Shown here one piece after another: positions 1 to 22,140 of a stretch of DNA of 23,510 nucleotides. The stretch comes from a virus. Every line of letters begins with the position of its first letter. The stretch's first letter is position 1. The notes beneath the pieces were generated by a model. That model was not told the origin of the DNA. It did no database searches and saw only the letters and a list, made by a program, of their open reading frames with translations. Where the stretch lies: the IMG/VR virus record IMGVR_UViG_3300032316_000614, positions 1 through 23,510 of that record; one strand, 5' to 3'. A program made the translations under genes and the position numbers.

Positions 1-1665
1 GTTAGGCCAACAGCGCCTAATCATGCGGTGTTCATTGGTTTTTGTGTCAGAAAGCACGCATCAGTCGGCGTTATATTTGTGAATGTGCAAAATGGTTACG
101 AAATAAACGAACTGCACAATGTGTACGCACCATCACCGACCAATGGCCAGGTACTTACTTATGTGTCCGGCAATTCACGATGGGAGGCGGCAACGGTGGC
201 AGATCAGAGCGCGACCAATGAACTGCAAACGCTATCGGTGGCTACCAATACCGCTACCCTATCCAACTCCGGAGGCTCTGTAACCATCGCGGGCGGTGGG
301 ATTAATAGTGTATCAACAGCCGGAAGCACGATAACCGTCACAGGCACGGAGGTTGACGGATCTGTAACTAACGAACTACAAACCATTGACACGTTCAGTC
401 TTTCGGGGCAAACATTGCGCGCATCACTATCGAATGATGGACAAGCGGCAAAAACCGTGACGCTTCCGGTGGTGGGGATTACGGCGGGCACAAATGTGAC
501 GGTGAGCAGTACGGGGGGTAATTTTACGATTAACTCAACGGGTGGCGGGGGCGGCACTCCGGCAGGTTCTACCGGCCAGGTGCAGTATAACAACGCGGGG
601 GCATTTGGAGCGAGTAGTAATTTATTTTGGGACAACACAAATACGAGGCTTGGTATTGGTACATCAACTCCGGCAGCCCCTTTAAATGTATTCAGGTCAA
701 CAGACGCAGAAATAAGGTCGTCTGTTACAAATGCGTTTTGTTCTTTTACGGCATATACGGCGTTCTCCGGGTATCCAAGATCATACTTTTTAATTGGAAA
801 CTCATCATCAGATATAAATACAGGATTGGTAGTTTCGCCTTTTTTTGACGACAAACAAACTTTTTTGGAGATAAGATCGTATAAAGGCGGGACAGATTCA
901 AGAAGCAGAAACTCAGTGCTATACAATAACCCAACAAGCGGATTTCTTATTGGAACCAACTCTGGAGACGGGAATACTGCAGGGCTACCTATTTCTATAT
1001 CAACGAGGGACTATAGCAATGCCTATTCGAATCCGGCCATATATATAAACACCTTTGCAAATAGCCAGCGCGTAGGCATCAATTCAACCACAACAAACGG
1101 TCAGTTGCATGTTAAAGGGTCTGGTTCTACCTCTGGAACATGGACAGCGCAATTTCATAATTCAGGCAATGCGAATAATGCGCTCATGGTTCGAGATGAC
1201 GGTATTGTAGCAATGGGTACGGCTTCTCCAAATTCATCCGCGAGACTTGACATTACCAGCACTACGCAGGGCGTTTTGCTTCCGCGAATGACAACAACAG
1301 ACCGGGGAAATATCGCATCGCCCGCTGACGGTCTGACGATTTACAACACGACCACAAAAACGCAGGATGTTTATAACAACACGCGGTGGTTAACAGGGAA
1401 CGCGGGCCTTACAGGTTCTGCGACCTTGGATTTCGGCTCTACTGCTGCTCAAACATCGTCTGACCTGACAATAACCGTAACGGGTGCCGCGGACGGCGAT
1501 GTTGTATCCTTGGGCGTTCCTAATGCGTCGGTGAATGCGAACACAAATTATACGGCATGGGTAAGCGCTGCGAACACGGTAACGGTCAGGTTCAACAACT
1601 ATTCATCGGCGGCGGTTGATCCGACCTCTGGTACATTTAAGGTTTTCGTCACGAAATTCAGTTAA
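1..1665 (+). CDS. Phage tail fibre / receptor-binding structural protein, 5' partial
   Basis: The frame is open to base 1, so the N-terminus lies outside the window; 554 residues are visible. A GTG at 28 is in frame, but the residues before it continue a pattern (APNHAVFIG, then VQNGYEINELHNVY) that I recognise near the N-terminus of tail proteins of Bacteroidota phages. The middle is low-complexity Ser/Thr/Gly/Asn beta-structure with a twice-repeated TNELQT block near residues 73 and 122. It then carries the typical fibre motif LGIGTSTPAAPLNV (about residue 220), a GVLLPRMTTTDR stretch (about 433), and a beta-rich C-terminal domain. No C-terminal S74-type chaperone domain is evident. Role: host attachment at the virion tail. 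The secreted accessory protein follows after 30 bases. Family-level call is strong; the receptor is unknown. Confidence 0.85.
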   Translation, partial: VRPTAPNHAVFIGFCVRKHASVGVIFVNVQNGYEINELHNVYAPSPTNGQVLTYVSGNSRWEAATVADQSATNELQTLSVATNTATLSNSGGSVTIAGGGINSVSTAGSTITVTGTEVDGSVTNELQTIDTFSLSGQTLRASLSNDGQAAKTVTLPVVGITAGTNVTVSSTGGNFTINSTGGGGGTPAGSTGQVQYNNAGAFGASSNLFWDNTNTRLGIGTSTPAAPLNVFRSTDAEIRSSVTNAFCSFTAYTAFSGYPRSYFLIGNSSSDINTGLVVSPFFDDKQTFLEIRSYKGGTDSRSRNSVLYNNPTSGFLIGTNSGDGNTAGLPISISTRDYSNAYSNPAIYINTFANSQRVGINSTTTNGQLHVKGSGSTSGTWTAQFHNSGNANNALMVRDDGIVAMGTASPNSSARLDITSTTQGVLLPRMTTTDRGNIASPADGLTIYNTTTKTQDVYNNTRWLTGNAGLTGSATLDFGSTAAQTSSDLTITVTGAADGDVVSLGVPNASVNANTNYTAWVSAANTVTVRFNNYSSAAVDPTSGTFKVFVTKFS

Positions 1666-1695
1666 GCACTCAAAATCTCTCAAAAAAACATCACC

Positions 1696-2346
1696 ATGAA
1701 AAATACAATCATCGTTTTTCTCTTCGCATTCATCACGACCGCACAAACGCAAACCATCATTCAGGATTCATCCTGGCTTACCCTAAACTCCGGCATCTAC
1801 TTCGCAAACCGTCTGCAAACCTACGACAATGGCAATAGTGTGCTTAGCACTACGAAGGTCGGTGACACAACAGCAGTCGTACAAGGCGCGATAAATGTGT
1901 ACAGAAGTCAGGCGGCCACGATGGCATCAGACGCTATACTGCTGTGCAGCAACGGCGCTAAAATTCGTGAAATAATCAGACAGGATGGACTGCTTCAAAC
2001 GCAGGTAGGAAAGTCGGCACTTAATCAGATTGCGCTACAGGTGGATACGTCAACTGTGGCAGGCAAATACTTTACCGCTTCAGGTTGGACTATCAAGGAT
2101 GGTGCAGATGCAGCAAAAAACATTGTATTCTCATTTAGTGCAACCACAGGCGCATTCAGATATAAAATCGGCTCTGAAACGGTGCGTTTGGCGTATTGCC
2201 TGGGTAATGTCATTCGGTTGGCTAATTATGGAACTACGGGGCGCGCCCTTGACTTTTACCGCGCTCCAAATGGCCGATGGGTGACGATAGACCTGCAACA
2301 GCAACTTATACCACCGCCTGCCATCATTCAAGCGCTTCGCAATTGA
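1696..2346 (+). CDS. Secreted hypothetical protein next to the tail fibre
   Basis: This 216-residue protein starts with a good signal peptide: a basic start (MKN), a hydrophobic core over residues 4-14, and a likely cleavage around residues 15-19 (TTAQTQ). The remainder is beta-rich and Ser/Thr/Asn-rich, with no catalytic motif that I can see. Its C-terminal half (about residues 110-190) resembles the short beta-segments of fibre-associated proteins. It sits between the tail fibre and the caspase-like gene; its stop lies just one base before the caspase ATG, so the two are probably translated together. It could be a fibre accessory or a periplasm/outer-membrane protein made late in infection. 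I do not recognise a family. Confidence 0.7.
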   Translation: MKNTIIVFLFAFITTAQTQTIIQDSSWLTLNSGIYFANRLQTYDNGNSVLSTTKVGDTTAVVQGAINVYRSQAATMASDAILLCSNGAKIREIIRQDGLLQTQVGKSALNQIALQVDTSTVAGKYFTASGWTIKDGADAAKNIVFSFSATTGAFRYKIGSETVRLAYCLGNVIRLANYGTTGRALDFYRAPNGRWVTIDLQQQLIPPPAIIQALRN

Positions 2347-2347
2347 C

Positions 2348-3079
2348 ATGGTTTACTCGCTTCACATCGGAATTAATAAGTACAGCGTAAGCGAATACGG
2401 CGAAGGTGCGAACTTGACGCAATGTGTGCGCGATGCGTATGTGCTTGCTGAAATTGCGCGCACGAAATTTAACTCAAGCAATGCGCGCGTACTTGCAGAT
2501 GAATTTTGCACGCTCGCGAACATCAAGCACGAACTTACGAAATACGCGCACCTGATGAACGCAAACGATGTACTGCTTTGCACGCACAGCGGACACGGCA
2601 CGTATCACGATTATCAGGGAACGCGCGCAACGGGTGTATGCGCGTATGATGGTGTCTTTTGGGATTTTCAGTTGTTTCCATTTTGGAAACAGTTTAGAGC
2701 AGGCACGCGCATTGTCCGGCTGATTGACACCTGTTATTCTGAATCCAATTTCAGGGCTGCACAGCCATTAGGCCGAACACGTTTTATTCAGATGCCCAAA
2801 GCGCCTGTAATAAAGCCGACTACCAACAAGATGGCCGAAGTTCGATGCAGTATCATATCTGTAAGCAGCAGCACGGTAAAGCAACCATCATACGAGAACG
2901 ACAAGGGCGGCGTGTTTACATTGGCGCTGGAGGAACTATTCAAGCAAGACGCTATACCAACCTACAACGAACTGCATAAGTTCACCACAGGGCAAATAAA
3001 CGCGTGGAAATACCCACAGACACCACGACTGGAGGCGCACAATGCCGGACAGTATAAGGCAAAGAAGTTTTTAACCTGA
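2348..3079 (+). CDS. Caspase-like cysteine protease (peptidase C14 / metacaspase type)
   Basis: This 243-residue protein is a nearly bare caspase domain. Seen: a first beta strand LHIGINKY (residues 5-12), a CVRDA helix start (26-30) typical of meta- and orthocaspases, the catalytic His in HSGHG (H83), and the catalytic Cys in LIDTCYSES (C129). D127 sits two residues before the Cys, the position that in metacaspases helps select Arg/Lys in the substrate. A p10-like segment follows (ISVSSSTVKQ and GGVFTLALEEL, about residues 175-200). Family knowledge: such enzymes cleave after basic or acidic residues and often mediate regulated proteolysis or cell death. There is no signal peptide, so it should act in the cytoplasm. 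It lies between tail and lysis genes, which suggests virion-protein maturation or a lysis/host-killing role; neither is shown. Confidence 0.85.
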   Translation: MVYSLHIGINKYSVSEYGEGANLTQCVRDAYVLAEIARTKFNSSNARVLADEFCTLANIKHELTKYAHLMNANDVLLCTHSGHGTYHDYQGTRATGVCAYDGVFWDFQLFPFWKQFRAGTRIVRLIDTCYSESNFRAAQPLGRTRFIQMPKAPVIKPTTNKMAEVRCSIISVSSSTVKQPSYENDKGGVFTLALEELFKQDAIPTYNELHKFTTGQINAWKYPQTPRLEAHNAGQYKAKKFLT

Positions 3080-3090
3080 AATAACGCCAA

Positions 3091-3357
3091 ATGCCACTAC
3101 CCGAACTGCCAAATTCAAAAAATCTACCCTATTGGGTTATATTTTGCCTGTGCGCTGCAATTGGGGTGCTGTATGGCAGGATAGTGGAGATTGAACGCGA
3201 CTGTGACACGGCGTTACAGCAGGAGCGCGAGTACTGGGAGCGAAGATTTACAGCAGAGCGAGAGAACAACGAAAAGATACGGAATGAAATGCTGCAATTC
3301 GTAAGCGAACAGCGCGCAAAGTATGACGAATTATTAACCAAAGTTCGCACTCAATGA
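3091..3357 (+). CDS. Inner-membrane spanin-like protein (Rz-like)
   Basis: The 88-residue product has one N-terminal membrane segment (about residues 14-28, YWVIFCLCAAIGVLYG) followed by a long charged helix (about 30-86, rich in E, R, K, Q) that looks like a coiled coil. This is the architecture of inner-membrane spanins (Rz). Its last four bases overlap the ATG of the following lipoprotein gene, the usual arrangement of Rz/Rz1 pairs, and a holin-like gene and an endolysin come next. Assignment rests on architecture and context; there is no sequence motif specific to spanins. Confidence 0.65.
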   Translation: MPLPELPNSKNLPYWVIFCLCAAIGVLYGRIVEIERDCDTALQQEREYWERRFTAERENNEKIRNEMLQFVSEQRAKYDELLTKVRTQ

Positions 3358-3674
3358 AATACATACTTCTTTCTACATTGTTCGCTTTCGTTCTTTCGTT
3401 TTTCATCACGAATTGCGCGAAAGAAAATTACAGGCATCCGACAGACCCACACGCAGACGATTACGCGAATATACGCGCGAATGAACGCACGAACATACGC
3501 AATGACGAACAGGCGCAAATTTTCAGCACACCGGAGATACGCGCAATCGCGGAGCAGGCAGACAGCGCGAATGATGCCATGCGCGCACGTATAGCGCTGG
3601 AACTTCGCAAAGCAAAAATGAACAAACAGGCAGGCGCGTGTAGTGCGACCTGCGACACATCATTAACACATTAA
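3354..3674 (+). CDS. Outer-membrane spanin-like lipoprotein (Rz1-like)
   Basis: This 106-residue protein begins with a lipoprotein-type signal: a hydrophobic stretch over residues 4-19 and Cys21 in FITNCAKE, a loose lipobox of the kind tolerated in Bacteroidota. The mature part is short, hydrophilic and helical, rich in Ala, Arg, Asn and Glu (for example ANIRANERTNIRNDEQ). The ATGA overlap with the upstream transmembrane coiled-coil gene supports a spanin pair that would bridge inner and outer membranes at lysis. It lacks the proline-rich segment of lambda Rz1, so the spanin assignment is by context. Confidence 0.6.
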   Translation: MKYILLSTLFAFVLSFFITNCAKENYRHPTDPHADDYANIRANERTNIRNDEQAQIFSTPEIRAIAEQADSANDAMRARIALELRKAKMNKQAGACSATCDTSLTH

Positions 3675-3685
3675 ATCACGACATC

Positions 3686-4150
3686 ATGTCAAAAACTAAA
3701 TTCAATCCAAAGTCACCCGGATTTATCGCATCCATCACCTATGCCATTCTTGCTGCCTTCGCAGCCACAGGCATTGAGTTTCCCAAAGACCCGTCTGCAA
3801 TTGCAAGTGATTTTGAAACCACGCTATCAAGTGGTGGCATCTTTGCCGTCACGGGCCTGCTGGTTTCAGCCATCGTGTTCCCGATATGGAACTTCACGAA
3901 GAAGGGCGGGAAGATCAACGCAAAACTGATTCTATCAAACACTACCTTTTGGGTGTCGCTTGTTACTGCTATACTCGGCTTTGCAGCGCTCTACGGATTC
4001 ACCGTGCCGGATGGCACAGCGGAACAGATTGTATCTGCCTTATACGCTAAAGATTGGGGCGTGCTGCTTTCGGTGCTGGCTATTAACATCCTCAATCCGC
4101 TCATTCGCTTCCTGAAGGAGGTAAAAAATATTGAGCCTGCCGAAGGGTAG
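3686..4150 (+). CDS. Holin-like multi-pass membrane protein
   Basis: The 154 residues contain about four hydrophobic segments (roughly 11-30, 50-70, 82-105 and 122-140) separated by short charged loops such as FTKKGGKINAK, and a charged C-terminal tail. Its place between spanin-like genes and the endolysin makes a holin (inner-membrane hole former that releases the endolysin) the natural reading. It is longer than many class II holins. No family-specific motif is recognised, so an anti-holin or other small membrane protein remains possible. Confidence 0.6.
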   Translation: MSKTKFNPKSPGFIASITYAILAAFAATGIEFPKDPSAIASDFETTLSSGGIFAVTGLLVSAIVFPIWNFTKKGGKINAKLILSNTTFWVSLVTAILGFAALYGFTVPDGTAEQIVSALYAKDWGVLLSVLAINILNPLIRFLKEVKNIEPAEG

Positions 4151-4192
4151 GTTAAAGGCACTTGATGCGTGTTTTTGATGATGAACGACAGG

Positions 4193-4216
4193 CCCGCCTG
4201 TGACAGCATGGGCGGG
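4193..4216 (+). other. GC-rich hairpin upstream of the endolysin promoter
   Basis: CCCGCC at 4193-4198 pairs with GGCGGG at 4211-4216 around a 12-base loop. A T-rich stretch follows after a short gap (GTTTTCTG at 4221-4228), so this may be a weak terminator that ends lysis-gene transcription before the promoter at 4244. The T tract is too broken for a firm call. Confidence 0.3.
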
Positions 4217-4221
4217 AACTG

Positions 4222-4251
4222 TTTTCTGTCAATTGAAAAGGCGTATCTTTG
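4222..4251 (+). promoter_or_regulatory. Bacteroidota-type promoter for the endolysin gene
   Basis: TATCTTTG at 4244-4251 fits the -7 consensus TAnnTTTG. The -33 element is weak: TTTT at 4222-4225, 18 bases upstream. The predicted RNA would start about 4255-4258, leaving a leader of about 25 bases before the ATG at 4283. This argues that the endolysin starts at 4283 and not at in-frame codons further upstream. Confidence 0.5.
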
Positions 4252-4282
4252 TCCGACACAAAACGGAACGAAACAAGAGACC

Positions 4283-4831
4283 ATGTTTGCAAAACAGATC
4301 ACGCCTGAATTTTACCGCGCACTTGCAAAGGCATTGAAATCTGCCAGGTTCACGCCTGTGCAGGAGCAGGCACCGAAGTTGATTGCAGAGAACTGCGACC
4401 GCTTCATCATCACCGACAAAAGGATGTTTGCCTATATGCTGGCTACTTGTTGGCATGAATGCAGATTCAAGCCTATACGCGAATTTAGAGCGGCTGAAGG
4501 CCATCCGGTAAGGCAGATGCAAGACAGGTACTGGAACACGGGATACTTCGGGCGCGGATACGTTCAATTGACATGGAAGAGAAACTATCAAATTTGGAGC
4601 GACATTACGGGCGCTGATTTGGTGAATTTTCCCGATAGGGCGCTTGAACCAACCATCGCTGCCTTTGTTTTGGTCAAAGGCATGAACGAGGGACTGTTTA
4701 CAGGTAAGCGCCTAAGTCAGTATATTAACGCCGAAAGGTGTGATTACTTCAATGCCAGGCGAACGGTTAACGGCGTATTCCATGCCGACATAATAGAAAA
4801 AGCAGCCAAAGCCATAGAGGCTGTTTTGTAA
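4283..4831 (+). CDS. GH19-family endolysin (muramidase/chitinase-like)
   Basis: The 182-residue protein fits glycoside hydrolase family 19, used by many phages to cut peptidoglycan. Seen: the helix carrying the probable catalytic acid in ATCWHECRF (E59), and the signature GYFGRGYVQLTWKRNY (about residues 87-102), followed by a helical C-terminal part. There is no signal peptide, so release by the holin-like protein encoded just upstream is expected. The open frame extends upstream to 4169, but that part (including a Cys/Pro-rich stretch) overlaps a promoter and hairpin, so the ATG at 4283 is preferred. A strong terminator follows at 4868. Confidence 0.85.
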   Translation: MFAKQITPEFYRALAKALKSARFTPVQEQAPKLIAENCDRFIITDKRMFAYMLATCWHECRFKPIREFRAAEGHPVRQMQDRYWNTGYFGRGYVQLTWKRNYQIWSDITGADLVNFPDRALEPTIAAFVLVKGMNEGLFTGKRLSQYINAERCDYFNARRTVNGVFHADIIEKAAKAIEAVL

Positions 4832-4867
4832 ATGTAGGTGTTTCTTTTTTTTGTGTAGGTTCCACTT

Positions 4868-4898
4868 GCCCGACTTGATTTCAGGTCGGGCATTTTTT
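4868..4898 (+). terminator. Rho-independent terminator after the lysis module
   Basis: A 10-base-pair stem (GCCCGACTTG at 4868-4877 with CAGGTCGGGC at 4882-4891, one G-U pair) closes an ATTT loop and is followed by six T residues. It ends the tail/lysis transcript. The same stem core recurs at 8030-8053. Confidence 0.85.
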
Positions 4899-4918
4899 GT
4901 TAATGCCTGAAAAACGTA

Positions 4919-4949
4919 TTGACAAACATCAAAAAGGTTTATATATTTG
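4919..4949 (+). promoter_or_regulatory. Strong Bacteroidota-type promoter
   Basis: TTG at 4919-4921 (within TTGAC) and TATATTTG at 4942-4949 are separated by 20 bases, an excellent match to the Bacteroidota primary-sigma promoter. It lies between the terminator at 4868 and the exonuclease gene. Transcription should start about 4953-4956. This also shows that the TTG at 4919 is a -33 element and not a start codon. Confidence 0.8.
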
Positions 4950-4975
4950 CAACGAACTTACACAAACATCACGCT

Positions 4976-5743
4976 ATGAACATCAACCACTTATCATTCA
5001 GTCGCTTAAAGGCGCTGCAACACAGCCCGCGAAAGCTGTACAATTATCTGTCTGAAAAGAAGGCAGAAACGCCATCCATGATTGAGGGCCGCCTCCTTGA
5101 CTGCATCCTTTTCACGCCCGATCAGTTCGACAGCGAGTATATCACGCTGCCTGAATCGCTGGACAGGCGCACAAAGGAGGGCAAAGCGGAATATGCCCGC
5201 ATTACGGGTATTGCAGCGGAGCAAGGCCTATCCATCGTCACATCCTCACAGGTAACCGAATCCTCGTTACTCGCAGTCGCTGTCAAAGAATCCGCAACTG
5301 TGCAAAAGCATGGACTGCTTAACCGTGAACTATTCAAATTTCAGGATTTTACGGACTTTGAGTTCGGCGGCTTTCGCCACGTGGGATACCGCGATGCAAT
5401 CGGCATTGACACCAAAGGCCGCCGCGTCATTTGGGATTTGAAGCGCTTCGGGGCGAAGTCGGGCGTTCAGGTGGGCTTTGAGATCAGGACAGGCGGGTAC
5501 GACCTTCAGGCAGCCATCTACTGCCATGAATTTGACAGCCAGGGCGAAGAGTGTATTTACCACCTGATTGCGGTGGATAATGACGGCATGGTAACGCCTT
5601 ACACTATCACACCCGAAGCGCGGGAACGTGCCACCGGGCAATGGGAGTATCTTTGTTCGGTGGCAAAGAAAATTGACGGAACGGAGTTCAGACAAGGGCC
5701 TGAATACTACGCTCCCGATGGGGAGTTCTACCTGTACACATAA
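4976..5743 (+). CDS. RecE-like PD-(D/E)XK exonuclease
   Basis: The 255-residue protein matches the phage exodeoxyribonuclease VIII/RecE-type nuclease fold. Seen: an N-terminal helix motif SFSRLKALQHSPRKLYNYL, a RecB-type helix around SMIEGRLLDCILF (34-46), the first metal-binding Asp in GYRDAIG (D140), the DLK of the PD-(D/E)XK motif (D154, K156), and the downstream helix YDLQAAIYCHEF with Q178 and Y182. Known role: 5'-to-3' digestion of double-stranded DNA to give 3' single strands for annealing-based recombination or DNA repair. An SSB-like protein is encoded two genes downstream, but no RecT/Beta-type annealase is obvious. The start at 4976 is chosen because upstream in-frame codons lie inside the promoter. 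Confidence 0.8.
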   Translation: MNINHLSFSRLKALQHSPRKLYNYLSEKKAETPSMIEGRLLDCILFTPDQFDSEYITLPESLDRRTKEGKAEYARITGIAAEQGLSIVTSSQVTESSLLAVAVKESATVQKHGLLNRELFKFQDFTDFEFGGFRHVGYRDAIGIDTKGRRVIWDLKRFGAKSGVQVGFEIRTGGYDLQAAIYCHEFDSQGEECIYHLIAVDNDGMVTPYTITPEARERATGQWEYLCSVAKKIDGTEFRQGPEYYAPDGEFYLYT

Positions 5744-8095: not shown

Positions 8096-8135
8096 GGGTA
8101 TTTTTTAACATGAAACAACGCAAAACACATTGAAC

Positions 8136-9452
8136 ATGAAAAAATATATTGACGTCAATGTTTATGACGCAGCCAATGAAAGAATTGATTTCATATTTAA
8201 GAACTTTGAGAAAATATACATATCTTTTTCAGGCGGAAAGGATAGCGGAGTAATGCTTAATCTTGTAATTGATTACATGAGAAAAAATAGCATCAACAGC
8301 AAGGTAGGTATTATGATACTTGATAATGAGGCTAATTATGAGCATTCATTGAATTTTATGCACGACATAATTAGAAAAAATCTTGACATACTTGATGTTT
8401 ATTGGTGTTGTATGCCAATAACACTGCCATGTACGGTAAGTGCATACGCTACAGAATGGCAATGCTGGGGGGTAAAAGATGAAAAAAGATGGATAAGGCC
8501 AATGCCGACTGACTCATACATTGTAAACATCAATAACCATCCGTTTCCCTGGTTTATTGAGAATATGAGTTATGATGAATTTTGGGATAAATTCGGCGAA
8601 TGGTACAGCGAAGGAAGCAAAAAGACAGCCTGTCTTATCGGCATACGCGCAGATGAAAGCCTGAATAGATACCGGGCTATTTTGAACGAGGATAAGACCA
8701 TGTTTATGGGTAAAAGCTGGACAAAAAAGAAGACACACAATAATGACTTTGTTTACAATTGTTATCCAATATACGATTGGAAAACAAAGGATATTTGGGT
8801 GGCAAATGCTCGCATGGGATGGGACTATAACAAGTTGTATGATATATTCTACATGGCAGGGCTTACAATTGCACAAATGAGGGTTGCGTCACCATTTATG
8901 TCAGAGTCAAAATCTTCGCTTAATTTGTACCGTGTAATTGATCCTCACGTGTGGGTAACTTTGTGCGCACGCGTTCAAGGTGCAAATTTTATTGCTACTT
9001 ACGGAAAGCAAATAAATTACCACAGTTTTAAACTTCCAAATGGTCACACTTGGAAATCTTTTGTAAAGTTCCTTTTAAGCACTTTGCCAAAAGAGGTTTC
9101 AGAAAATTTTAAGGCTCGGTTTATTCAATCAATTCTATTCTGGGGAAGGGTAGGCCGAGGATTACCGGAAGAAGTAATTTCAGAACTTGACAAGCATGGA
9201 GTTCAATACACAATTAACGGCTTAACCCCTCACGGATCAGGAAATAAAAGAAGGGTTCGCATTCAATCAATGCCCGATCATCTTGATTCACTTTCGTTCC
9301 ACAATTCAGAGGTTGCAAGCTGGAAAAGATTTGCAATAACAATCTTGAAAAACGATCACACGTGCAAGTATATGGGGCTTGCACCTACAAAGGAGCAAGC
9401 TGCCAGGCAGCGCGAAATCATGGAAAAGTACAAAAACATTGAACAATTTTAA
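8136..9452 (+). CDS. ibrA: IbrA-like PAPS-reductase-family protein (DUF3440)
   Basis: The 438-residue protein has the PP-loop SFSGGKDSG near its N-terminus (residues 31-39), the ATP-pyrophosphate-binding motif of the adenine-nucleotide alpha hydrolase / PAPS-reductase superfamily. Further on are IGIRADESLNRYRA (about 170-183) and YPIYDWKTKDIW (about 209-220), both typical of the family. The C-terminal end, CKYMGLAPTKEQAARQREIM, matches what I know of DUF3440/IbrA proteins. Biochemical role is uncertain: family members activate substrates with ATP, and relatives take part in sulfur transfer, including DndC in DNA phosphorothioation. In E. coli, IbrA works with the ParB-domain protein IbrB in gene regulation. 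A cupin gene and an IbrB-like gene follow. An upstream TTG at 8130 is less likely than the ATG at 8136. The gene is AT-rich relative to its neighbours. Confidence 0.88.
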   Translation: MKKYIDVNVYDAANERIDFIFKNFEKIYISFSGGKDSGVMLNLVIDYMRKNSINSKVGIMILDNEANYEHSLNFMHDIIRKNLDILDVYWCCMPITLPCTVSAYATEWQCWGVKDEKRWIRPMPTDSYIVNINNHPFPWFIENMSYDEFWDKFGEWYSEGSKKTACLIGIRADESLNRYRAILNEDKTMFMGKSWTKKKTHNNDFVYNCYPIYDWKTKDIWVANARMGWDYNKLYDIFYMAGLTIAQMRVASPFMSESKSSLNLYRVIDPHVWVTLCARVQGANFIATYGKQINYHSFKLPNGHTWKSFVKFLLSTLPKEVSENFKARFIQSILFWGRVGRGLPEEVISELDKHGVQYTINGLTPHGSGNKRRVRIQSMPDHLDSLSFHNSEVASWKRFAITILKNDHTCKYMGLAPTKEQAARQREIMEKYKNIEQF

Positions 9453-9464
9453 ACACACAAAAAA

Positions 9465-9863
9465 ATGAAAGTTCGCACAATTAAAAGCATCACACACACG
9501 GAACGCCATGTAATTGGCGTAGGTTTTGAATCATTAAGAATTGTCCTGGCAAAGGATGATATTGGATTTTCCGTTCACAAAACAGTAATACCAAAAGGCC
9601 CTGCAAGGCATTGGCATTACAAACACCACAAAGAGGTGTGTTATTGCATTCAGGGGCGCGGAATACTTACAAACCTTGAAACCGGAGAAACATTTAAGAT
9701 TGTGCCTGATACGGCGTACATTCTTGACAACCACGACAATCACACGTTTCAGGCAATTACAGATGTTGTGTTGATTTCTGTTTTTAATCCACCCGTAACC
9801 GGACATGAACTTCATGATGAAGATGGCTCATATCTGCCTGCTAAAAAAATGCTAAACCTGTAA
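9465..9863 (+). CDS. ectC: Ectoine-synthase-like cupin (EctC family)
   Basis: The 132 residues align along nearly their whole length with L-ectoine synthase, a small iron-dependent cupin that cyclises N-gamma-acetyl-diaminobutyrate. Seen: FSVHKTVIPKG (35-45), HWHYKHHKEVCYCIQGRG (49-66), AYILDNHDNH (84-93) and the C-terminal signature FNPPVTGHELHDEDGSY (107-123). The residues expected to bind iron, E57, Y85 and H93, are all present, as are R25, T40, Y52, H55, F107, E115 and H117 that I recall as substrate-pocket residues; residue 21 is Phe where Trp is usual. No ectA or ectB is in the window, so this is a solitary copy. It sits 12 bases after the IbrA-like gene and 11 before the IbrB-like gene, so it probably works with them on another small substrate. 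Confidence 0.82.
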   Translation: MKVRTIKSITHTERHVIGVGFESLRIVLAKDDIGFSVHKTVIPKGPARHWHYKHHKEVCYCIQGRGILTNLETGETFKIVPDTAYILDNHDNHTFQAITDVVLISVFNPPVTGHELHDEDGSYLPAKKMLNL

Positions 9864-19827: not shown

Positions 19828-20601
19828 ATGGGAACTTTAGCCACAACCGGAATCACATTCAAACAACTTCACCATCAGGCAGCCCCGAATATCGGGCTGC
19901 GTGCCTGGCAGGTCAAGGTAAAGAAAATCACAGGCGCTTACGATGGCAACGCCATTGCTACGCCCGATCAGATAAACGCCCTGCTATCAGCAGGCGCAAA
20001 GAGGATTCATACGATTCATACAGCTTCTACTAAAGCAGCAAAGGTTAGCTATTCCCATCGGCAACAGCCGGAATCAAAAGCGGTTCCGGCTGAACCTTTG
20101 GAAGCAACCAAAGTGCAGCCTGAAGTGCATCCTGAATTAAAGCCTGAAGCGCAACAGTTTGAACAATATCAGCCATACGAACCGGAGCCGCTGAATTGGC
20201 AACTGTGGGCTGTACTGGTATTCTCACTCGGTTGCAGCGTGCCAAATATGTATTCTGTAGCGCTTCAAATGAAAGACAGCGCATTCCTCGCAATGGCAAT
20301 AACCGCCACGTTCACAATCAGTCCAATGTTACTACTTACATCTGAGAACCGAACAGCGCGCATTGCAGCGTTCATCCCAATCGCCATTGAAGTATTCGCC
20401 AACACAGCGGGCTATTATGGCAACCTTTTGTCTATAACAGTAGGCAGCGACATCATCACGCCTGGTAAGTTCCTGAACATGGTTATGCAGATGGCAGGCA
20501 CAGGCGCACGCGGAACGGCTTTATTTTTGGCACTTATGATGGCAGCCGCAATTGCTGCAATGTCGGTAGTGTCAGTTCACTCTATAATTAAAAAAGCATG
20601 A
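19828..20601 (+). CDS. Multi-pass membrane protein with a long cytoplasmic N-terminus
   Basis: The 257 residues begin with a soluble segment (1-120). It contains a small folded-looking part (about 20-65, IGLRAWQVKVKKITGAYDG) and a Pro/Glu/Gln-rich linker (about 75-120). Four hydrophobic segments follow (about 124-145, 153-170, 179-197 and 225-248), ending HSIIKKA. No transporter motif is seen. The gene overlaps the next, a membrane-anchored lysozyme-like protein, by 4 bases, which suggests the two act together at the inner membrane. Confidence 0.65.
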   Translation: MGTLATTGITFKQLHHQAAPNIGLRAWQVKVKKITGAYDGNAIATPDQINALLSAGAKRIHTIHTASTKAAKVSYSHRQQPESKAVPAEPLEATKVQPEVHPELKPEAQQFEQYQPYEPEPLNWQLWAVLVFSLGCSVPNMYSVALQMKDSAFLAMAITATFTISPMLLLTSENRTARIAAFIPIAIEVFANTAGYYGNLLSITVGSDIITPGKFLNMVMQMAGTGARGTALFLALMMAAAIAAMSVVSVHSIIKKA

Positions 20602-21392
20602 AACAGGACATTGATGACGCGCACTATGAGGAACTGTCAGGGCGCGTTCAAAGGACAAATCAGCCGCCTCCATTCCTGACAAAGCGATTTGTCATTGTGG
20701 GTGCAATCACAGCACTCGCATACAACTACGCCACCAAAGAGCGCGAAAGCCGCGATGTACTTGCATTCACAGATCAGCCTGAAGAGGATACGCAGTTCGG
20801 ACTGATGGCAACAGCGCCTGAAGCCAAAGCAGCCGCGAAAGTGCCGGAGCAGACAAACGGCCACGACTTGTTCAAGTACGTTATGCTGGAAACAAAGCGA
20901 AGAGAGGCGTTAGGCAGGCGCGGTAAAGAACTGGAATCATACATGGATGGTGATTCACCTGCCATCGGGTACGGTAACCGCATCAAATATCTGCCTGCCA
21001 AATGGAAGCAGGTGGTAGATGAACAGGGGTACAAAGTGACGGAAGCACAAGCGAGGGCGATGATGTACGATACCTTTGATAGTCTCAAAGAAACCATTAG
21101 CGCCGACCTGCCACATCTTGACCGTCACGAATTGTGGGCGGTTCAATCGCTTGCTTTCAATTGGGGCTATGGTAACGTCAAGCGATCACCGCTATATCAG
21201 CACCTGAAAGCCGGAAACAAAACGGGTGACGCACGCCGTGCCTGGATGAAATGCCACGCAGCCACCGATAACCACAGGACAAGCAGACGGTTTGAGTGGG
21301 CGCTTTATACCGGAGATTTCAAAGAGGCAAAAAGGTACGCTGACAAGGCGTACAACAGTATTGCCGGACGTGGTGACTTGAAACATTATTGA
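20598..21392 (+). CDS. Membrane-anchored GH24 (T4-lysozyme-like) protein, catalytic Glu displaced
   Basis: The 264-residue protein has an N-terminal membrane segment (about 31-44, FVIVGAITALAYNY), a linker, and a C-terminal T4-lysozyme/GH24-like domain (about 95-235). Seen: ESYMDGDSPAIGYGN (113-127), matching the AYxDxxGxxTIGYG block, VTEAQARAMMYDTF, and LWAVQSLAFNWGYGNVKRS. In active members a Glu lies seven residues before the Tyr of that block; here it is Arg (R108). E103, E111 or E113 could replace it, or the protein may only bind peptidoglycan. It is separate from the GH19 endolysin at 4283 and not in the lysis module. Confidence 0.65.
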   Translation: MKQDIDDAHYEELSGRVQRTNQPPPFLTKRFVIVGAITALAYNYATKERESRDVLAFTDQPEEDTQFGLMATAPEAKAAAKVPEQTNGHDLFKYVMLETKRREALGRRGKELESYMDGDSPAIGYGNRIKYLPAKWKQVVDEQGYKVTEAQARAMMYDTFDSLKETISADLPHLDRHELWAVQSLAFNWGYGNVKRSPLYQHLKAGNKTGDARRAWMKCHAATDNHRTSRRFEWALYTGDFKEAKRYADKAYNSIAGRGDLKHY

Positions 21393-21396
21393 CGCT

Positions 21397-21609
21397 ATGG
21401 AAGATTTGATTAATCTCAACTTTTGCCATAGTGATGGATCTGGATCAGGATGCGGTTTTAGCTCAGGATCTGGCAACGGCTACGGATACGGCAATGGTAG
21501 TGGCAGCCGCGGAACCCACTACGGAAGTGGAACTGGATCAGGATTTGGATACAGCTACGGAAATGGCAGCGACAACGGCATTAGTAATTCTTTTGGTGAC
21601 GTAGAATAA
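21397..21609 (+). CDS. Gly-rich X-Gly repeat protein 1
   Basis: The 70-residue protein starts MEDLINLNF and then is mostly Ser/Gly, Tyr/Gly and Asn/Gly dipeptides; 21 of 70 residues are Gly and aromatic residues recur (FGYSYGNG, GYGYGNGSG). Codons for Gly are mixed, so the array is not a recent expansion. The N-terminus resembles those of the two following repeat proteins (M-[EQ]-[DS]-L-I). No signal peptide. Such [G/S]-Y-[G/S] composition resembles low-complexity proteins that phase-separate, which is inference. Function unknown. Confidence 0.7.
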   Translation: MEDLINLNFCHSDGSGSGCGFSSGSGNGYGYGNGSGSRGTHYGSGTGSGFGYSYGNGSDNGISNSFGDVE

Positions 21610-21618
21610 AAACAGGCA

Positions 21619-22140
21619 ATGCAAGACTTAATCAGACAAGGTTCAGGGCATGGCCATGGAAACCAAAATTGCTACGGAAACGGTTATGGAGATGGTATGT
21701 CTTCAGGCACTTACGAAATGATGAGTCACGGATCGGGAAGTGGTGAAAGTAACGGAATTCAAAACGCACGGTCAATTGGCTGGAGTGTTGAATTAATAGA
21801 GAAAAGAACAAAACAATTCACAACCAAACACACAAATAACATGGCAAGCATGATTAACAAAATTTGCATCATCCGCTCTTATGAAAGCGGTGTTCACTTA
21901 GGAGAAGTACTTGAAACACGCGACACAATTCACGGACTATCCGTAACACTCAAAGATAGCCGCCGCGTTCACTACTGGGAAGGCGCTGCTTCATTATCGC
22001 AAATGGCGCTTGATGGCATCAAAACCGGACGTATCGCAATGGTGCTGCCTGAAATTCAGGTAGAGAACGTCTGCGAAATCATACCGATGTCAGAAGCCGC
22101 AATTGATAACATGAAAAAGCAGCCGATATGGAGAGTTTGA
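21619..22140 (+). CDS. X-Gly repeat protein 2 fused to a small conserved domain
   Basis: The 173-residue frame begins MQDLIRQGSGHGHGNQN, with a Gly/Ser/Tyr-rich segment to about residue 47. From residue 75 comes a folded domain (INKICIIRSYESGVHLGEVLE, split around 78-98; RRVHYWEGAASLSQMALDG at about 114-132; then a VLPEIQVENVCEIIP strand). That domain resembles small phage proteins of the DUF6948 type, as I recall them. The ATG at 21841 gives a 99-residue protein preceded by an A/C-rich leader nearly identical to the one before 22333. So the domain may be its own gene, and the repeat part may be a separate small gene that lost its stop. It overlaps the next gene by 13 bases. Confidence 0.65.
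   Translation: MQDLIRQGSGHGHGNQNCYGNGYGDGMSSGTYEMMSHGSGSGESNGIQNARSIGWSVELIEKRTKQFTTKHTNNMASMINKICIIRSYESGVHLGEVLETRDTIHGLSVTLKDSRRVHYWEGAASLSQMALDGIKTGRIAMVLPEIQVENVCEIIPMSEAAIDNMKKQPIWRV
21815..21835 (+). repeat. A/C-rich leader element, copy 1
   Basis: Matches 22300-22320 at 20 of 21 positions (AATTCACAA, C or G, CAAACACACAA). Here it lies inside the open frame of the repeat protein 2 just before an ATG at 21841, which suggests a real translation start there. Confidence 0.55.

What the first reader, a model, noticed from the sequence alone, without database searches (positions are those of the whole stretch)
2348..3079. Phage-encoded minimal caspase between tail and lysis genes
The His/Cys dyad (H83, C129), the CVRDA helix, Asp two residues before the catalytic Cys, and a p10-like part are all present in 243 residues. 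Caspase-fold proteases are best known as host or defence-system enzymes; a late-region phage copy could process the fibre or spanin partners, trigger death at lysis, or disarm a host defence. The adjoining genes (tail fibre, secreted protein, spanin pair) are co-oriented and tightly spaced.
Basis: partly seen in the sequence, partly recalled or inferred. Interest (0 to 1): 0.76.

Follow-up and report, generated by a model that had tools for sequence, protein, structure and literature searches.

The report
Phage-borne caspase in late operon
A bacterial virus carries, among its tail and cell-bursting genes, a small protein-cutting enzyme of the caspase kind with its active site kept intact by selection; phages of several types carry relatives, but what it cuts is unknown.

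Summary
ORF 2348-3079 encodes 243 residues with His83, Cys129, Asp127 and Asp29. A ten-sequence family model gives a confident caspase fold (pTM 0.81; best solved match GSU0716/3bij, Z 25.7, over residues 1-243). Ten of ten aligned full-length rows keep the dyad. dN/dS is 0.04-0.06 among close relatives. Residues aligned with the metacaspase S1 pocket predict cleavage after Arg/Lys, not Asp.

The gene lies in a late operon (tail fibre, exported protein, caspase, spanins, holin, endolysin). It is not the head protease: a probably complete relative has its own S78 enzyme. A caspase frame follows the exported-protein gene in 11 of 12 contigs; one lacks it. Linkage to lysis genes is not kept: in two relatives the holin homologue lies 18-20 kb away. 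So the caspase is accessory and travels with the tail/exported module.

Window, L021, L028 and L052 form a supported phage clade with a C-x-(S/A)-E-S signature. L031/L032 share it in a gene whose His segment has moved to the C-terminus. No paper found in eight searches describes such phage caspases. Substrate and purpose remain inferred; a late Arg/Lys-specific effector acting on host or exported proteins is likeliest (about 0.4).

The parts
2348..3079 (+). Metacaspase-like C14 protease, 243 aa, p20 plus p10-like part, no prodomain
2423..2437 (+). CVRDA (residues 26-30); D29 aligns with the Asp of the S1 pocket of T. brucei MCA2
   Evidence: pocket role recalled
2588..2596 (+). Ser81-Gly82-His83, catalytic His
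   Evidence: H83 and S81 invariant in A3
2726..2734 (+). Asp127-Thr128-Cys129, catalytic Cys with pocket Asp two before it
   Evidence: D127 and C129 invariant in A3
2744..2827 (+). Low-confidence basic linker between p20 and p10-like parts (residues 133-160)
   Evidence: pLDDT under 50
1696..2346 (+). Exported (signal-peptide-like) protein, always directly upstream of the close caspases
28..1665 (+). 3' part of a tail-fibre gene (807 aa in G003)
   Evidence: phrog_677 E 4.5e-5; G003
3091..3357 (+). Putative inner-membrane spanin
   Evidence: N-terminal hydrophobic segment; inferred
3354..3674 (+). Putative outer-membrane lipoprotein spanin
   Evidence: lipobox-like FITNC (sequence); inferred
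3686..4150 (+). Holin
   Evidence: phrog_297 E 2.9e-4
4169..4831 (+). Endolysin, GH19-like
   Evidence: phrog_181 E 1.1e-22; PF00182 23.4 bits, just under its cut-off of 25.5
4867..4892 (+). Terminator-like hairpin after the endolysin, probable end of the late operon
   Evidence: 3 such sites found, 4.3 expected in shuffles; this one has an 11-pair stem and a T run

Best explanation
Shown: the gene encodes a caspase-fold protein with the His-Cys dyad, kept by purifying selection, in a late operon of a tailed phage; it is accessory, and it travels with the fibre/exported-protein block. Inferred: it is an active cysteine protease that cuts after Arg or Lys, made late with virion and lysis proteins. 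It stays in the cytoplasm (no signal peptide seen) and most likely cuts host proteins, or the neighbouring exported protein once the envelope is breached, so as to speed host shut-down and clean release. That it is a phage-encoded C14 protease: about 0.93. That it acts as a late host- or envelope-directed effector rather than a virion-maturation or anti-defence enzyme: about 0.4.
For: Fold and dyad. Purifying selection. An orthologue passes the PF00656 cut-off over nearly the whole domain (L028, 52.2 bits against 21.4), as do L052, L053, L054. One base separates it from the upstream stop, no convincing promoter lies just upstream, and a terminator-like hairpin follows the endolysin, so late co-expression is likely. 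A distinct S78 prohead protease exists in the relative G003. The caspase is absent from L027, hence dispensable. A gene with a signal-peptide-like or lipoprotein-like start directly precedes the caspase in window, L021, L028, L052 and L054, 5 of the 8 contexts looked at; not in L031, L053, L055. In L031 the caspase again lies near a fibre-like gene and next to multi-TM proteins.
Against: No substrate, activity or expression data. Holin neighbourhood not kept in G009/G010. L053 lies by terminase, and no lysis context was recognised for L055. L007 has lost the Cys half, so the activity is not always kept. The exported-protein pattern was read by eye and by hydropathy, without a null test.
Confidence: 0.4

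Rival explanations
1. It trims the tail fibre or the neighbouring exported fibre-like protein, i.e. an accessory processing protease for particles or surface proteins.
For: A caspase frame directly follows the exported-protein gene in 11 of 12 contigs that carry that gene, one of them a fused remnant; this linkage survives at 50% caspase identity while the downstream genes change.
Against: L027 keeps fibre and exported protein without the caspase; unrelated neighbours in L052-L055.
Confidence: 0.25
2. It protects the phage: it cleaves a host immune protein, or it is a phage-borne defence effector against rival phages.
For: PADLOC 'caspase' model matches P0001 (E 1.2e-7 over residues 3-106) and five of seven relatives scanned; presence/absence polymorphism suits an arms-race gene.
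Against: No sensor or gasdermin-like partner recognised beside it; late rather than early position; no own promoter seen.
Confidence: 0.2
3. It is the head-maturation protease or another essential structural enzyme.
For: Late operon.
Against: G003 carries an S78 prohead protease (PF04586, E 2.7e-36); L027 lacks the caspase.
Confidence: 0.02
4. A caspase-fold protein used for binding, not for catalysis.
For: No activity data; pseudo-orthocaspases without the dyad are described (PMC6426788, abstract in the listing).
Against: H83 and C129 are in all ten rows of A3 and both motifs are in the permuted L031; the pocket residues D29, S81, D127 are invariant in A3.
Confidence: 0.06

Closest known systems
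GSU0716 of Geobacter sulfurreducens (PDB 3bij), single-domain bacterial C14 protein
   Same: Same fold over the whole length (Z 25.7), same dyad, no prodomain
   Different: Bacterial; 22% identity in the structural alignment; CHSG active-site motif instead of CYSES
Type I metacaspases (T. brucei MCA2, yeast MCA1)
   Same: Profile alignment nearly end to end, pocket residues aligned
   Different: No N-terminal prodomain and a shorter protein; calcium dependence untested
Bacterial orthocaspases (p20-only homologues, as defined in PMC5756287, passages read)
   Same: Prokaryotic-type C14 with the dyad
   Different: Here a p10-like part follows the p20 and no accessory domain is attached
Metacaspases of giant eukaryotic viruses (BFVD: Fadolivirus, Clandestinovirus and others)
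   Same: Virus-encoded caspase fold, E down to 2.4e-13
   Different: Different viruses and hosts; no tailed phage is among the 26 matches at E 0.001 or better
'Phage-related' metacaspase operons of Clostridium botulinum (PMC3501461, passage read)
   Same: Caspase homologues near phage-like genes
   Different: Reported in bacterial genomes without description of a phage protease; not compared in sequence here

Membership tests
Peptidase family C14 / PF00656 | Curated profile score | tested here: inconclusive
   P0001 and L021 do not reach it; orthologue L028 52.2 bits against cut-off 21.4, L052 63.4, L053 88.3, L054 50.7
Peptidase family C14 / PF00656 | Caspase-hemoglobinase fold | tested here: met
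   Model pTM 0.81; 3bij Z 25.7, metacaspases 20-24, caspase-7 19.6
Peptidase family C14 / PF00656 | Catalytic His and Cys | tested here: met
   Invariant in 10 of 10 rows of A3; the L007 fusion lacks the Cys
Peptidase family C14 / PF00656 | Proteolytic activity | not testable with these tools
   needs protein
Type I metacaspase | p20 followed by p10 domain | tested here: met
   Profile alignment to MCA1 and MCA2 to near the C-terminus; model strands and helices 168-231
Type I metacaspase | Acidic S1 pocket for Arg/Lys | tested here: met
   D29, S81, D127 align with residues of 4afr; that those MCA2 residues form the pocket is recalled
Type I metacaspase | N-terminal prodomain | tested here: not met
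   First strand begins at residue 2; the review says type I can contain, not must contain, extra N-terminal motifs
Type I metacaspase | Calcium activation | not testable with these tools
   needs protein
Orthocaspase (p10-less) | Lacks p10 | tested here: not met
   p10-like part present
Anti-phage defence caspase modules | Dedicated sensor or effector partner gene | tested here: inconclusive
   PADLOC caspase model hit; neighbours are fibre, exported protein, spanin-like frames, holin, endolysin; neighbours were not scanned against PADLOC
Phage head maturation protease | Prohead protease of a known type next to the capsid gene | tested here: not met
   A separate S78 protein lies beside the capsid gene in G003

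The most novel reading that the evidence does not exclude
Tailed phages have their own caspase subfamily (signature D-x-C-(Y/F)-(S/A)-E-S-N, including one member with its His segment transposed to the C-terminus) that works as a two-compartment device. The protease waits in the cytoplasm, its partner is exported ahead of time by the gene just upstream, and holin-made holes bring them together at lysis, for example to strip a surface decoy or receptor mask so that progeny leave the debris unbound.
Probability: 0.08. Interest if true: 0.85.

Novelty: new variant of a known kind. Interest (0 to 1): 0.55.

Why it matters
Caspase-type proteases in bacteria are discussed mostly as host suicide or defence enzymes. 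A phage-carried clade under strong selection would make phages users, and perhaps donors, of this machinery, and would give a small single-domain enzyme whose substrate and role can be tested genetically. The transposed member L031 would add a new architecture to the caspase fold.

Tried and rejected
Head-maturation role: rejected, separate S78 protease. Own promoter: the scan of 1600-5000 gave 6 promoter-like hits against 4.5 in shuffles, none on the + strand just upstream of 2348. Random open frame: rejected by dN/dS. The first AlphaFold run on six similar rows gave only pLDDT 53, though it already matched 3bij and metacaspases; superseded. INPHARED: P0001 has no match at E 0.01 and only chance-level rows up to E 10; L028 finds one unannotated 485-kb phage record. 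Genome contigs gave one relative at 30%, so no host was identified. A Bacteroidota host is only a guess: the ten best DnaB rows include human-faecal phages and Cellulophaga phage phi39:1, but also a Streptococcus phage, and the nearest terminase and capsid rows are from other hosts. Contig ends: 4 of 8 close records end inside the gene against 0.77 expected. Two of them (G004, G005) stop at the same place inside a block of about 44 bases that is identical in the window and three relatives although these differ elsewhere in the gene, so I read these as assembly stops, not as a site-specific event; this is inference. L007 fusion: its 3' part resembles the C-terminus of the exported protein (35-40%); recombination or misassembly not resolved. 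Scan with the holin found only records already held; scan with L031 found only itself in two metagenomes. Literature: searches found no description of a tailed-phage caspase. PMC4933709 puts hits from viral size fractions only in a supplementary table (passages read; the table was not seen). PMC7475262, PMC9301287 and PMC11500664: passages only, nothing on phage-encoded caspases. PMC7077304 and PMC7468147 were searched for caspase terms with no occurrence.

Full report
What is there. ORF 2348-3079 (+) gives 243 residues. The window is a 23,510-base virus record. The gene starts one base after the stop of an exported-protein gene (1696-2346). It is followed after 11 bases by two spanin-like frames that overlap by four bases, then a holin (phrog_297) and an endolysin (phrog_181). 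A terminator-like hairpin lies at 4867-4892.

Is it a caspase? P0001 alone has no Pfam or PHROGs hit and a sub-threshold NCBIfam hit; phmmer finds 3bij (GSU0716) at E 6.5e-10. Relatives close the gap. L028 reaches PF00656 with 52.2 bits (cut-off 21.4), residues 8-235; L052, L053 and L054 reach 63.4, 88.3 and 50.7 bits; L021 does not. A six-frame search with PF00656 over eight relative records rang in four, so the Pfam model misses part of this clade. A profile of ten relatives (A3) matches 3bij at 1.7e-45, and metacaspases of yeast, trypanosome and plants at 1.5e-32 to 4.7e-24. Its AlphaFold2 model (pLDDT 77.8, pTM 0.81; linker 133-160 under 50) aligns over 1-243 with 3bij at Z 25.7, metacaspases at 20-24 and caspase-7 at 19.6.

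Active site. Twenty-five columns are invariant in A3, among them D29, S81, H83, D127 and C129. In the alignment with T. brucei MCA2 (4afr) these meet the Asp, Ser, His, Asp and the mutated Cys of that enzyme. From memory these include its S1 pocket; a review states that all characterised non-caspase C14 members cut after Arg or Lys because of an acidic pocket (PMC5756287, passages).

Selection and distribution. Among window, L001, L002 and L006 dN/dS is 0.039-0.059 in six of six pairs; L021-L028 gives 0.159. Close relatives lie in eight IMG/VR records. Three have the whole gene (G001, G002, G006). One (G003) has it split over the ends of a contig with a 25-base end overlap, probably a complete circle. 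Three are cut by contig ends (G004, G005, G008). G007 (L007) is a fusion that keeps the His half and loses the Cys half. Orthologues at 50 and 49% are in G009 (L021) and G010 (L028). More distant phage-contig members are L052, L053, L054 and a stretch of an unannotated 485-kb phage record, L055. A tree of 15 rows puts window, L001, L006, L021, L028 and L052 in one clade (100/100) apart from plasmid and cyanobacterial proteins and from L053-L055; the sampling of bacterial proteins was small (6 rows) and L054 is a long branch. Clade members read D-x-C-(Y/F)-(S/A)-E-S-N at the Cys, where L033, L053, L054, L055, 3bij and MCA1 read C-x-S-G.

Context. Twelve contigs carry the exported-protein gene (11 loci plus the window). 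A caspase frame follows it in 11 (three cut by the contig end, one the L007 fusion); L027 goes straight to the spanin-like gene. In G009 and G010 the caspase follows the same exported gene, but an opposite-strand gene lies beyond it and the holin homologue is 18-20 kb away (from the coordinates). So the caspase goes with the fibre/exported block, not with the lysis block. G003 has TerL, S78 protease and HK97-type capsid protein and no tyrosine or serine recombinase by PF00589 or PF00239, whereas G009 and G010 have a tyrosine recombinase. In five of eight contexts examined the gene just upstream starts with a signal-peptide-like or lipoprotein-like segment; no null test was made.

A transposed relative. 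L031 and L032 (identical proteins, two metagenomes) hold a 269-residue frame in which profile positions 21-75 are followed by 125-233 and then by 67-117. The segment with the His has moved behind the p10-like part. All parts are in frame, the Cys motif is DTCFSES, and no long repeat flanks the junctions, which argues against a repeat-driven assembly error. PF00656 matches its Cys part above the cut-off (28.6 bits). The two metagenomes may not be independent samples.

Mechanism. Shown: caspase fold (by prediction and profile), dyad, selection, late-operon position, dispensability, linkage to the exported protein. Inferred: activity, Arg/Lys specificity, cytoplasmic site, late action on host or exported proteins. 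Rivals are given separately; optional fibre or exported-protein processing is the strongest.

Known or new. The enzyme family is known. Caspases of giant eukaryotic viruses are known; the 26 BFVD matches at E 0.001 or better include no tailed phage. PMC3501461 mentions phage-related metacaspase operons in C. botulinum (passage). Eight library searches gave no account of a tailed-phage caspase. PHROGs gave nothing for seven of eight phage or phage-contig members tested (P0001, L021, L028, L031, L052, L053, L054); the eighth, L055, touched phrog_18397 at E 0.014, the cyanobacterial L033 matched at 0.036-0.061, and the L007 fusion touched an anti-repressor family at 0.019. I call it a new variant of a known kind.

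Noticed in passing
L031:9752-10561 and L032:9058-9867: Caspase gene with its His-containing segment transposed to the C-terminus, all in frame, next to multi-TM proteins and near a 1586-aa beta-helix fibre-like gene.
   Followed up: partly
L007:1064-1537: In-frame fusion of about the first 96 codons of the caspase with a segment like the C-terminus of the exported protein, followed by head-tail-connector-like genes.
   Followed up: partly
window 2777-2820: About 44 bases identical in window, L001, L002 and L006 although the genes differ elsewhere; two contigs from different metagenomes stop inside it.
   Followed up: partly
window 9465-9863: Phage-encoded ectoine synthase-like cupin (PF06339, 154 bits) beside a PAPS-reductase/DUF3440 protein (8130-9452).
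   Followed up: no
window 1696-2346; fibre genes of G003, L021, L028, L031: Several fibre-like late proteins begin with signal-peptide-like sequences, which is odd for virion proteins.
   Followed up: no
window 21397-22140: Two adjacent Gly/Ser/Asn-rich repetitive frames of unknown function.
   Followed up: no
window 20598-21392 and 4169-4831: Two lytic enzymes: a phage lysozyme (PF00959) far from the lysis block, and the GH19-like endolysin within it.
   Followed up: no
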